64,000 nt of DNA from Owenia fusiformis (Eukaryota > Annelida > Polychaeta > Sabellida > Oweniidae). Numbering within the stretch: the stretch's first letter is position 1; the number at the start of each line of letters is the position of its first letter. A program made the translations under genes and the position numbers. Below are positions 21,575 to 55,113 of the stretch, in pieces. The stretch spans positions 10,727,375 through 10,791,374 of the forward strand of contig CAIIXF020000005.1 in NCBI GenBank assembly GCA_903813345.2, written 5' to 3'. Below the pieces are notes generated by a model. It made no database searches. It worked only from the letters and a program-made list of their open reading frames with translations, and was not told where the DNA came from.

Positions 21575-24500
21575 TTAGCGTCCTGGTTTGACGGGGCTTT
21601 TTGTGGGACTCCCTGGCTTCTCCGGATAGGCAGTCAGGTCTAACGTTAAAACTTTACTGACGACGCACTCTCCCCCTTGCTGTAAGTAAAGTGTTAGTAC
21701 ATGTCAATAATTTGTTTAATATCATACAGTGTTCTCCCATCACTATGACAATTAGGTGAGAATTTGATAACAAGCTTGTATCCAGTTCAAAATTTGAAAA
21801 ATTATGATATATTTTGACCAGCCTGGACATTTCTTAATCCAAGATTTACTGACTAATTTGCCCATCATTGTATTACATGATTTAGTTCTACTTTTGGTTC
21901 AATTTTGCACCCAATTGGCGAAATGTTCTAGTGAGAACACTGTCATATGTTGATTTAATTTGATTTTCTGCATGCAAATCATTTTAACAATAGTTGATGT
22001 TTTACTCTAAGTGGTATTAAAGGGGCACAATCTTGTGTAACACATGCACTAAAATCTATACTACCTTATTTATAATTAACCATAAGTACAATACAAAAAG
22101 CTTATACTGAATCATAACATGGCTTAAAATGAAAAGAATTTTAGCCTACTTCATGTACATGGTTTTGAGCATTACACAATCAAAGACGACCTCCCCCAAA
22201 AACAGCAATCATTTGATTCGCTTCACACTAAATGCTGCTAGGCCCCCTTATTATATAAAATCTGCTGAGCTGTTTTGAAAAATCTAGGTTTACATTTCAA
22301 ATTGTGACAAATTCAAAGTTCTTCTTTTTAAAATCATGAAATGGAAACAATTCATTTCCATCCACTCAATATAAATAATTACAGATGCAAAAAGCATCAA
22401 CTTTGTTTATAAGCCATATTATAATATACATTGTTGCCACAACCTTTAAAACAGATCCAAGTAAGAAATCCCCTAGGGAAGTGTATATATTTTAGAACTT
22501 CCTTTCAGTTTTCCTCACTTCATATATTTTTTCAGATTGTGCTCGAATTTTGATCTTTTCAAAATTTCACTTATTCCAAATTCCATGAGTTTTCTTTGAT
22601 TCAAAAATTCCCTGGCCATATAAGCCTTTGAGAGAATTGTGAAATTCTCAGACTTTCTAGGCCAGGGTTAACAAGACTGTAGCAACCTTGTATTATATTC
22701 ACAGATCTTACCTCTGGATATATGCCTATGAGTGAGTCAGCTCTGTTATAGAACTCTTCTTTTAATGAGATTACGATACATTGGAAGGCAGACACAGATT
22801 GGTCGCAGATATATGACGCTACCTAAAAAGTTAAATAAATATGTTGATATGATTCATTATAAGAGGCAACCATATTTTCATTGCAAAGGCTGGACTTATC
22901 TTTCAATAATGATTATTTGATTGAGAGCCTATCCAATCAAAATGTGTACAAAATGCTGTTAAAACTATGTTTAAGCTCACAAAAATCAAATAAATTTGAA
23001 GAACAGTACTCAAGAGGGTTGAATTGTACTGTTAACCTCTGGACTAAAGGGTATTTAAAAGCACATGTACATATATAGCTTACCTTTCCTATATTGGTGT
23101 TATCAAGGGCAGCATCGATCTCATCAAGGACAAAGAAAGGAGCTGGTTTATAGCTGAAAAATATACACATACATGAACTGTACATACTCGCTTTATAGAT
23201 TCAGCAAATTACCCCATGCTCTCTGATTGGTACGAGAATGATGTTAAAGTGATGATAGAAGTTAAGTTTTAAGGTTTTAAGTTCTTTAGACTAACTTTAT
23301 ATAAATGTATTGTACTATTGGTACGTTGTATTAGGAGAGTTGTGTAATTAATGTTCATAATCTTACAATGTTATGTTATGATAGAAGTTTAGTTTGCTCA
23401 ATTTTATTGTTCTTTGAAAGAGAAATGGACAGACGAATGGAGGACTTCTCTATATCCCTCTCTAACTTTTTGGTGAGATAACAAACAACCTTACCTGTGG
23501 ATGGCAAAAAGAAGGGCAAGTGCAGCAACAGTCTTCTCTCCACCAGAGAGGTTATCCATAGGCCTGAACCTCTTGCCTGGTGCTACACAATTGTAGTTAA
23601 TACCATCTAGATATGGCTCCTCTGGATTCTCAGGCCCCAGAAATGCCTGGGCACTCTGGTTCTTTGCTAAAGACTGGAAAAATGAAATGAAAACATTTTA
23701 AACATGTATTAATGTCAATTGAACTAAAACTAAAGGGAACAAAGGACTTAAAGGGTTCTGAATGAATGCTAGATACAAAATTTAAATTCATAAAACGTAG
23801 GTCAATTGTTGTAACAGGTACAAACTATACATGTAATCAATAAAAATCACTTTTGTTATTATTTCCAAATATTTTTGGACATTACATGATACATACCTTA
23901 TATATTTCATCTATTCTTGTGGACACATGTTCGAAACAGTTATTGAATCGGTCGAATCTTTCCTTTCTAACTTTTTCAAAATTCTGCTTTGCTTTCTTTG
24001 CTGTTCTTCTGGCTTTTTCAAAATCTTCTGAGGTTTCAACTAATCTGTCTTTAACACCTTCCAACCTGGAATATAACATTGAGTTTGTTGGTGGTTTTGT
24101 AAACAGGGTTACTGTAAAACACAATGAATTTGTGGTAGCAATTTTCACTTTGTACATTTACTTCTTTTCAAGTACATGTAAACATAAATTGTAGAATCAA
24201 ATCAAAATTGATCCATGTTTGATTTTAGAAAATACACTGTATTAATACATCTTTAAAACATACTCTATAAATACAAGCCAAAATAAATACAAAAATCGTA
24301 GGTTTTACTTACTTTTCCATTGCTTTCATATTAGGCGCATTAATCCTTTGTAGAGTATTCTGCATATCTGACACTTGTTTATTCAACTGCTCCAAAGTCT
24401 TTCTCACTTCATCAGCGTGATCTAAATCTTTCATATCCTCATCTAGTTTATTGTAGTTTATACGAATATTAGCCTCTTTTTCATATATTGCCTTGGCACC

Positions 24501-54700: not shown

Positions 54701-55113
54701 ACAAGACTCTCTAAATCTCTAATCGCTACACTGCATTTTCTGCCGATTAGAAGCTTCAAACTCTCATTCAAGTCACAATTGAGATTAAAAAAATATAGCA
54801 TTGGTAGCTTATAGGATTCAGAGTAATTTTGCAATGAGATCTCAATTTATCCTTTTATTTTCAGCGTTTGAAACAAGAAGAAGAGCTACGAGATAAAGAA
54901 TGGGAACGTCAAAGGATCGCCAATGCAAGGGCAGCTTTACTATTGGAACGCGAACAAGATCGTCAGAAGAAAGATCTCGACAAACAACAGGCAAATGAAA
55001 ATAAGAGACTTTCATCAGAGCAGAAAAATCATCTGGACTTTATGAATAAAGAGGTTTATACAAACAGGCCATCTGCAGCGTATTTTCAGCAATGGAACAC
55101 GACAACTCGATAA
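48774..55113 (+). CDS. RIBC2: RIB43A-like with coiled-coils protein, 5 exons, 379 aa
   Basis: RIBC proteins are microtubule inner proteins that lie along protofilaments inside the doublets of cilia and flagella. Exons are 48774-48890, 50200-50281, 50526-50989, 54234-54461 and 54865-55113 (exit phases 0, 1, 0, 0, stop). The total is 1140 nt, giving 379 aa, matching the 377-379 aa of human RIBC1 and RIBC2. Diagnostic blocks are EAAAIERRKNMEEQRKSRIF near the N-terminus, RREFDLYDP at about 105, LQKFDGEDLN, FGPHRVITDRWKGMSPEQ in exon 4, and VYTNRPSAAYFQQWNT at the C-terminus. The whole chain is charged alpha-helical coiled coil, without signal or membrane segments. It is as close to RIBC1 as to RIBC2 by eye; the symbol is a convenience for the unduplicated gene. 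It is divergently transcribed from SMC1 and has an X-box upstream. Confidence 0.96.
49032..49613. mobile_element. Tc1/mariner-type MITE in RIBC intron 1
   Basis: The left end is cagtggggatcataaag and the right end tttttgtcccccactg; the outermost CAGTGGGG matches in inverted orientation. TA precedes the left end and follows the right end. A second, smaller MITE (49262-49388) is nested inside. Confidence 0.65.
49262..49388. mobile_element. MITE of the GGAGGATTGGCTCCCAG family, copy 1
   Basis: The ends ggaggattggctcccagaat and attctgggagtcaaccgtcc are inverted copies. The same ends bound a longer copy at 63306-63613 in the acinus-like gene. Confidence 0.75.
51236..51372. repeat. Hairpin-forming inverted repeat
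   Basis: aatatttcactctattgagg and, inverted, tagagtgaaatatttg close a stem that includes tgaatacctgta and tacaggtattca, around a loop at gaagcccgaagggc. It is adjacent to the MITE at 51373-51663. Confidence 0.75.
51373..51663. mobile_element. MITE with TTATTATATCACTGTCTAGCTA ends
   Basis: The left end ttattatatcactgtctagc is the inverted copy, with small differences, of the right end gctagatagtgatataataa. The interior has an internal palindrome (cgtgggatatcgctagatat and its continuation to cccacg). It lies in RIBC intron 3. Confidence 0.7.
52490..54150 (+). mobile_element. Large hairpin-ended element with 162-bp internal satellite
   Basis: It starts tacaaaatgtccccaccta and ends gacaatatggccccacacta then tgtggtggggacataaaa, a hairpin-bearing end structurally equivalent to the short dispersed elements but with GGGGAC in place of GGTGAC. 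Inside are seven copies of a 162-bp unit; gaaaatccaaaatgg recurs at 52581, 52746, 52908, 53070, 53232, 53394 and 53562. A gacggacagacagac microsatellite follows at 54060-54100. It is non-coding and fills most of RIBC intron 3. Confidence 0.8.

What the first reader, a model, noticed from the sequence alone, without database searches (positions are those of the whole stretch)
21575..55113. Unduplicated SMC1-RIBC head-to-head pair
The window shows a complete SMC1 and a complete RIBC gene divergently arranged with 531 bp between start codons. In human, SMC1A faces RIBC1 on Xp11.22 and SMC1B faces RIBC2 on 22q13.31. One pair here implies that the head-to-head link predates the vertebrate genome duplications and has been kept since. 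A cohesin gene and a ciliary gene sharing a promoter is functionally unexpected.
Basis: partly seen in the sequence, partly recalled or inferred. Interest (0 to 1): 0.75.

Follow-up and report, generated by a model that had tools for sequence, protein, structure and literature searches.

The report
Ancient SMC1-RIBC head-to-head gene pair
In this animal a chromosome-cohesion gene and a cilium gene stand back to back across 531 bases, as their copies do in mammals, and the short stretch between them holds likely switches for both, so this looks like the single ancestral version of a very old gene pair.

Summary
A complete SMC1 gene (minus strand, about 25 coding exons, 1,253 aa) and a complete RIBC gene (plus strand, 5 exons, 379 aa) diverge with 531 bp between start codons. 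Whole-genome searches found no second RIBC and no second SMC1; pieces of the other SMC matches are SMC2, SMC3, SMC4 and SMC5. In a small unrooted tree this RIBC pairs with the sea urchin chain, outside both mammalian RIBC1 and RIBC2. Five of five tested families tied to the human SMC1A or SMC1B regions lie on this same chromosome, against one of six comparison genes, which supports one ancestral chromosome behind both human regions. The gap has the highest CpG observed/expected ratio of the window, strongest on the SMC1 side. It holds an exact RFX X-box near RIBC, and E2F-, NRF1- and CGCG-type sites near SMC1 (noticed by eye before counting). I read it as a compact bidirectional promoter with two modules. 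The pair is of a known kind (an ancestral microsyntenic pair). The dual promoter, and its bearing on the human SMC1B/RIBC2 aneuploidy variant, make it worth a test. Other invertebrates, SMC1B sequence and expression could not be examined.

The parts
21575..48242 (-). SMC1 gene (cohesin ATPase), about 25 coding exons, 1,253 aa; stop codon at the low end, start codon 48240-48242
   Evidence: Spliced alignment and open frame; crude exon concatenation hits PDB SMC1A at 1371 bits; Pfam SMC_N 161.4 bits and SMC_hinge 90.3 bits
48774..55113 (+). RIBC (RIB43A) gene, 5 coding exons 48774-48890, 50200-50281, 50526-50989, 54234-54461, 54865-55113; 379 aa
   Evidence: Pfam RIB43A positions 2-372 of 372; a first exon concatenation (one extra residue) hits chain 8snb, labelled RIBC2 (sea urchin, species recalled), at 502.7 bits
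48243..48773 (.). 531-bp divergent intergenic region, read as a bidirectional promoter
   Evidence: Spacing; the three 500-bp windows of highest CpG observed/expected in the 64 kb begin at 48301, 48351 and 48251 (1.33, 1.32, 1.27; mean 0.44, sd 0.25), on 13-17 CpGs each; in 300-bp windows the ratio falls to 0.91 at 48501-48800
48362..48368 (-). E2F-type site TTCCCGC, 119 bases from the SMC1 start codon
   Evidence: the motif alone is not rare (3 in the window, 19 of 100 shuffles reach that)
48374..48383 (+). NRF1-type site TGCGCATGCG, 131 bases from the SMC1 start codon
   Evidence: 2 in the window, 0 in each of 100 shuffles; distance
48416..48423 (+). TCGCGAGA element (BANP/ZBTB33-type, name recalled), 173 bases from the SMC1 start codon
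   Evidence: Only one in the window; distance
48636..48648 (+). RFX X-box GTTGCC-A-AGTAAC, exact match to GTNRCC N0-3 RGYAAC, 125 bases from the RIBC start codon; contains GTTGCCAA, the site mutated in a spag6 reporter in a choanoflagellate
   Evidence: 1 in the window, 3 of 100 shuffles have one; consensus and reporter from PMC10530576 passages

Best explanation
This is the single-copy, pre-duplication form of the SMC1-RIBC head-to-head pair. The 531 bp between the genes act as one bidirectional promoter with two modules: E2F/NRF1/CGCG-type sites 119-173 bases from the SMC1 start codon drive cell-cycle expression of cohesin, and an RFX X-box 125 bases from the RIBC start codon drives expression in ciliated cells and sperm. 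The two genes stayed together because their core promoters lie in one short stretch that cannot be broken without harming at least one of them. The vertebrate genome duplications then copied the block, giving SMC1A-RIBC1 and SMC1B-RIBC2. Shown: the genes, spacing, copy number in this assembly, CpG peak, motif matches and chromosome linkage. Inferred: that the animal is a non-vertebrate, that the motifs are bound, that the promoter is bidirectional, and that sharing is the reason for retention.
For: Gene models and spacing. One RIBC and one SMC1 found in 498 Mb (pieces of other SMCs identified). RIBC similarly distant from chains labelled RIBC1 (41-44%) and RIBC2 (44-47%) but 65% identical to the sea urchin chain; RIBC1 and RIBC2 each exclusive at 100/100, window plus urchin 94/93. 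Linkage: HUWE1, KDM5, ATXN10, synapsin and IQSEC families, every match on C5, which is 42.5 of 498 Mb; comparison genes on C8, C8, C4, C1, C10 and C5. CpG peak. All four motif classes co-occur nowhere else in the 64 kb, and 0 of 5,000 dinucleotide shuffles of the 531 bp hold three or more. In HEK293 cells SMC1B transcripts rise when E2F6 is removed, and SMC1B and RIBC2 are both up-regulated on MGA loss (PMC5806899 passages). rs2272804 lies 144 bp upstream of the SMC1B start in a CpG island, and a cited title places it in the RIBC2 5'UTR (PMC12960220). Cattle adjacency.
Against: All four motifs were noticed by eye before they were counted, so the shuffle statistics are post hoc; only the RFX class would have been the natural choice beforehand. 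The E2F-type motif alone is not rare. In Drosophila an X-box (loosest consensus) in one species did not predict RFX control (PMC2375033 passages). No TGACGT site was found although ATF1 binds the human SMC1B promoter in vitro. The CpG excess fades toward RIBC (0.91 at 48501-48800), and near-equal peaks occur at 63.0-63.6 kb. A second NRF1-type site lies at 47706 and a second X-box at 33933, both in SMC1 introns. By path length and midpoint root the window RIBC lies nearer RIBC2 than RIBC1, and the urchin chain is itself labelled RIBC2. SMC3 is also on C5. No expression data and no other invertebrate genome.
Confidence: 0.65

Rival explanations
1. Neutral retention: the pair is ancestral but kept only because 531 bp is a small target for rearrangement. 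The two promoters are independent neighbours without functional coupling.
For: The motif modules sit at separate ends, each near its own gene, and the CpG excess is mainly on the SMC1 side, as two adjacent independent promoters could give. Other, non-adjacent genes also stayed on this chromosome.
Against: Those other linked genes lie scattered over the chromosome (C5 at 1.4, 7.1, 16.2, 28.7 and 37.0 Mb) while SMC1 and RIBC stayed within 531 bp here and their annotated genes within 334 bp in cattle.
Confidence: 0.2
2. Selection for co-expression: the pair is kept because SMC1 and RIBC are needed in the same cells, above all in the male germ line, where meiotic cohesion is followed by flagellum building.
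For: In HEK293 cells both SMC1B and RIBC2 rise when the PRC1.6 subunit MGA is lost, and RIBC2 is listed as testis-enriched (PMC5806899 passages). A common haplotype is proposed to co-regulate both (PMC12960220).
Against: SMC1 is needed in all dividing cells and RIBC in ciliated cells (general knowledge). The sites found near each gene are of different kinds. No expression data for this animal.
Confidence: 0.2
3. Independent adjacency: the link arose separately in this lineage and in vertebrates.
For: Only this one genome was examined, and its phylum is unknown.
Against: The same two families are neighbours at sub-kilobase spacing here and in cattle, and the same further genes share the chromosome; coincidence is very unlikely.
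Confidence: 0.02

Closest known systems
SMC1A-RIBC1 on the mammalian X chromosome
   Same: Neighbouring genes; in cattle SMC1A ends 96,252,806 and RIBC1 starts 96,253,141, with KDM5C and HUWE1 in the same table (PMC6941043 passage); a human Xp11.22 gain encompassing SMC1A, RIBC1, IQSEC2 and HSD17B10 (PMC3435243 passage; a figure legend there prints RIBC2 in place of RIBC1)
   Different: One of two paralogous pairs; no KDM5, IQSEC or HUWE1 match lies in this window, their matches being elsewhere on C5
SMC1B-RIBC2 on human chromosome 22
   Same: Adjacent genes with a CpG-island promoter upstream of SMC1B; E2F6-dependent repression of SMC1B
   Different: SMC1B is meiosis-specific; an ATF1 site is documented there and no TGACGT was found here
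Conserved ancestral microsyntenic pairs / divergently paired genes (Irimia et al. 2012, recalled and seen only as a citation; PMC3815023, PMC2871058 and PMC5429095 passages)
   Same: Genes kept adjacent and often divergent over long evolutionary times
   Different: I could not see whether this pair is in the published lists: Irimia et al. is not held, and the main texts of the other three name neither SMC1 nor RIBC

Membership tests
SMC1 (cohesin subunit) | Best match to SMC1 rather than SMC2-6 over the whole length | tested here: met
   PDB SMC1A 1371 bits against 193 for the best SMC4, with a crude exon concatenation; 779 of 1231 aligned residues identical to a typed SMC1A reference
SMC1 (cohesin subunit) | Intact ATPase halves and hinge (GPNGSGKSN, LSGGEK, hinge domain) | tested here: met
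   Read in the protein (motif names recalled); SMC_N and SMC_hinge over cut-off
RIB43A / RIBC | Full-length RIB43A domain | tested here: met
   PF05914 positions 2-372 of 372, 484.6 bits
RIBC1 or RIBC2 orthologue in the strict vertebrate sense | Nests inside one of the two mammalian groups | tested here: not met
   Window protein plus 7 of the 15 distinct chains listed: RIBC1 (3) and RIBC2 (3) each 100/100 and exclusive; window with urchin 94/93; unrooted, and the midpoint root groups them with RIBC2
Bidirectional (head-to-head) gene pair | Divergent genes with start sites under 1 kb apart | tested here: met
   531 bp between start codons; transcription starts not mapped
Bidirectional (head-to-head) gene pair | CpG-retaining shared promoter | tested here: inconclusive
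   Top CpG observed/expected of the window, but on 13-17 CpGs, at G+C 0.29-0.32, and fading toward RIBC
Bidirectional (head-to-head) gene pair | One stretch drives both genes | not testable with these tools
   Needs expression or reporter data
Ancestral microsyntenic pair | Kept across distant animal phyla | tested here: inconclusive
   Seen here and, from papers, in mammals; no other animal genome held; one scan each of genome contigs and viral contigs confirmed no relatives

The most novel reading that the evidence does not exclude
The 531 bp are an ancient two-way switch that couples the choice between dividing (cohesin, E2F/NRF1 side) and carrying cilia or building a sperm tail (RFX side). 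After the vertebrate duplications it was split into a somatic copy (SMC1A-RIBC1) and a germ-line copy (SMC1B-RIBC2). The human promoter variant tied to lower SMC1B and higher aneuploidy risk would then act within this inherited shared element, which would explain why RIBC2 led the transcriptome-wide signal.
Probability: 0.25. Interest if true: 0.65.

Novelty: new member of a known kind. Interest (0 to 1): 0.42.

Why it matters
If the shared promoter is old and functional, variants between SMC1B and RIBC2 in people should be read as acting on both genes. That bears on the 2026 report that an SMC1B promoter haplotype is associated with aneuploidy (PMC12960220). It also gives an unduplicated reference for asking how one promoter was divided between a mitotic and a meiotic cohesin after genome duplication.

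Tried and rejected
Searched for relatives in genome contigs with RIBC exon 3 (38 pattern matches, 0 confirmed) and in viral contigs with an 88-aa SMC1 C-terminal piece (6 pattern matches, 0 confirmed). Neither gave animal loci, so the RIBC tree is limited to solved-structure chains that were printed: 7 of the 15 distinct chains plus the window protein. Left out: one further RIBC2 chain (8i7r) and the seven algal, protist or fragment chains, whose letters were not printed. So the tree has no outgroup. Some rows lack a few N-terminal residues.

Tried to identify the animal through COX1: no match in the assembly. The phylum stays unknown; that the closest RIBC chain held is from sea urchin is no proof of kinship. 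That the genome is a non-vertebrate animal is my inference from gene content and copy number.

An SMC1 tree with SMC1B was not built: no SMC1B sequence was held and none was given to any call.

Motif classes scanned in the 531 bp without a notable hit: NF-Y, ETS, CREB/ATF, YY1, SP1, E-box and T-box (0 hits each); TATA-like (1 hit, 1.52 expected) and FOX (1 hit of the looser pattern, 1.02 expected) at background; one MYB-type TAACGG at 48455 (0.06 expected), not pursued. Rfam found nothing at gathering thresholds, and ARAGORN no tRNA.

Linkage: the five families were chosen from memory and the family-to-gene names are recalled. HUWE1 and ATXN10 rest on one exon match each (E about 1e-7). Only Paf1 and ANAPC8 were run as planned comparisons (0 of 2 on C5); the four SMC genes were added afterwards (1 of 4 on C5). 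I considered TIMP, PHF8, FAM118, HSD17B10 and FBLN1 but did not search them.

In the listings and the passages I opened I saw no paper that describes SMC1-RIBC as an invertebrate or ancestral pair. All papers were seen as passages only, save one whole section of PMC12960220. Supplements and most subscription papers were out of reach. PMC7515907 and PMC10266980 added nothing to the argument; the latter says RIBC1 had been wrongly assigned as RIBC2 in the 7UNG model, so that row's label is by its deposited sequence.

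Full report
What is there. The window lies on contig C5 (42.5 Mb) of a 498-Mb assembly that I take to be a non-vertebrate animal. A protein-guided spliced alignment, which by design accepts only GT/GC...AG introns, gives an intact SMC1 gene on the minus strand: about 25 coding exons, 1,253 aa, from 48242 down to a stop ending at 21575. The aligner had split one exon (24313-24629) by a 30-bp false intron; I merged it and extended the last exon to its stop. A 6-bp exon at 25798-25803 remains uncertain. The protein is 63% identical to the SMC1A reference over 1,231 aligned positions, and 80% over its last 190 residues; that reference was typed in part from memory. RIBC on the plus strand has five exons and 379 aa and covers the RIB43A domain end to end.

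Copy number. RIB43A matches four places in the genome, and all four are exons of this gene (exon 2 gave no match). The SMC1 protein gives 28 matches: 24 in this gene and 4 elsewhere at 47-50% identity. SMC_N gives 10 matches: 2 in this gene and 8 on C4, C1, C5 at 25.6 Mb and C10. The hinge family gives 5: 2 in this gene, 2 on C4 and 1 on C1. Pieces from those places hit, as best solved structure, SMC4 (C4), SMC2 (C1), SMC3 (C5 at 25.6 Mb) and SMC5 (C10). I searched one piece for C4, C1 and C10 and two for C5; the other pieces at each place were assigned by nearness. No second SMC1 or RIBC was found. These searches score only the best candidates and cannot see stretches of N.

Position relative to the vertebrate paralogues. 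The window RIBC is 65% identical to the sea urchin chain 8snb and 41-47% identical to six chains labelled RIBC1 or RIBC2 (mammalian; species partly recalled). In an 8-row tree RIBC1 and RIBC2 are each exclusive (100/100) and the other two rows pair at 94/93, just under the strong-support mark. The tree is unrooted: it shows that the window gene sits inside neither mammalian group. The midpoint root and the path lengths put it nearer RIBC2 than RIBC1. For SMC1 I rely on a published statement that a vertebrate duplication gave rise to SMC1-beta and that a two-copy SMC1 in Daphnia is independent of it (PMC2680839 passages).

Chromosome-scale linkage. I chose five families whose human members I recalled as neighbours of SMC1A or SMC1B or as lying in the same paralogous regions. 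KDM5C and HUWE1 are listed with SMC1A in cattle (PMC6941043) and IQSEC2 in the same human gain (PMC3435243); ATXN10 and synapsin rest on recall. All five of five fall on C5, at 37.05 (KDM5), 7.10 (HUWE1), 1.38 (IQSEC), 28.74 (ATXN10) and 16.19 Mb (synapsin), on a contig holding 8.5% of the genome. HUWE1 and ATXN10 rest on a single exon match each. Of six comparison genes one (SMC3) is on C5 and five are not; only two of the six (Paf1, ANAPC8) were chosen as controls beforehand. This supports one ancestral chromosome behind both human regions. Against neighbours scattered over tens of megabases, the 531-bp SMC1-RIBC spacing stands out.

The promoter region. In 500-bp windows at 50-bp steps, the three highest CpG observed/expected values of the 64 kb (1.33, 1.32, 1.27; mean 0.44, sd 0.25) start between 48251 and 48351, at a G+C of 0.29-0.32 and on 13-17 CpGs each. 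Next come windows near 63.0-63.6 kb (1.25). In 300-bp windows the ratio peaks at 1.85 (48301-48600) and falls to 0.91 at 48501-48800, so the excess is mainly on the SMC1 side. The region holds an exact X-box, GTTGCC-A-AGTAAC, 125 bases from the RIBC start codon. It matches the consensus GTNRCC N0-3 RGYAAC given in PMC10530576 and contains GTTGCCAA, the RFX site that was needed for full reporter activity of a choanoflagellate spag6 promoter (passages). It also holds an E2F-type site, an NRF1-type site and a TCGCGAGA element 119, 131 and 173 bases from the SMC1 start codon. All four classes occur together nowhere else in the window. Among 5,000 dinucleotide shuffles of the 531 bp, 213 held one class, one held two, and none held three or four. 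I noticed these motifs by eye first, so the numbers describe rather than test. The factor names for E2F, NRF1 and TCGCGAGA are recalled.

What is known. In HEK293 cells SMC1B transcripts rise and PRC1.6 leaves the SMC1B promoter when E2F6 is removed, and SMC1B and RIBC2 are both among the genes up-regulated on MGA loss (PMC5806899 passages). A fine-mapped variant 144 bp upstream of the SMC1B start, in a CpG island, lowers ATF1 binding in vitro; RIBC2 leads the transcriptome-wide signal, and the authors propose that the same haplotype co-regulates both genes (PMC12960220). Mouse sperm doublets hold both RIBC1 and RIBC2, whereas bovine sperm use RIBC2 in the place of RIBC1 (PMC13066092 passage), so one RIBC can serve both sites, as an animal with a single gene would need. 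Conserved divergent pairs are a known class (PMC3815023 and PMC2871058 passages).

Verdict. The finding is a good unduplicated example of a known kind of conserved pair. Its most useful part is the two-module promoter. It is a prediction that can be tested directly, and it bears on how a human aneuploidy variant should be read.

Noticed in passing
36123-37298 and 40850-41293 (+): B-box (36123-37298) and NHL-repeat (40850-41293) reading frames, TRIM-like, lie on the opposite strand inside the 9-kb fifth intron of SMC1; a reverse-transcriptase ORF (38517-40949, minus, RVT_1) sits between them. The frame 37649-38323 in between has no Pfam match.
   Followed up: partly
35377-36405: Inverted-repeat arms (134 nt at 92%, 610 nt apart; 81 nt at 94%, 867 nt apart) lie at the start of the B-box reading frame. 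The frame between them (35833-36099) looks mariner-like to me from memory, but has no Pfam match.
   Followed up: partly
33933-33946: A second exact X-box (GTTGCC-AT-AGTAAC) lies in the same SMC1 intron.
   Followed up: no
46247-47865: Clustered copies of a palindromic unit around ACCGACAATTGTCGGT, direct and inverted, in SMC1 intron 1, with locally high G+C and CpG.
   Followed up: partly
58677-59880 (-): Ankyrin-repeat reading frames, the lower one ending in a SOCS box (ASB-like, name recalled), downstream of RIBC.
   Followed up: no
52524-53577: Tandem array of a 162-bp unit, 6.4 copies, inside the RIBC intron between exons 3 and 4.
   Followed up: no
1992-2604: 34 copies of an 18-bp unit, open in one frame on each strand.
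   Followed up: no
G000 C5 at 25.6 Mb: SMC3 lies on the same contig as SMC1, about 14.8 Mb away.
   Followed up: no
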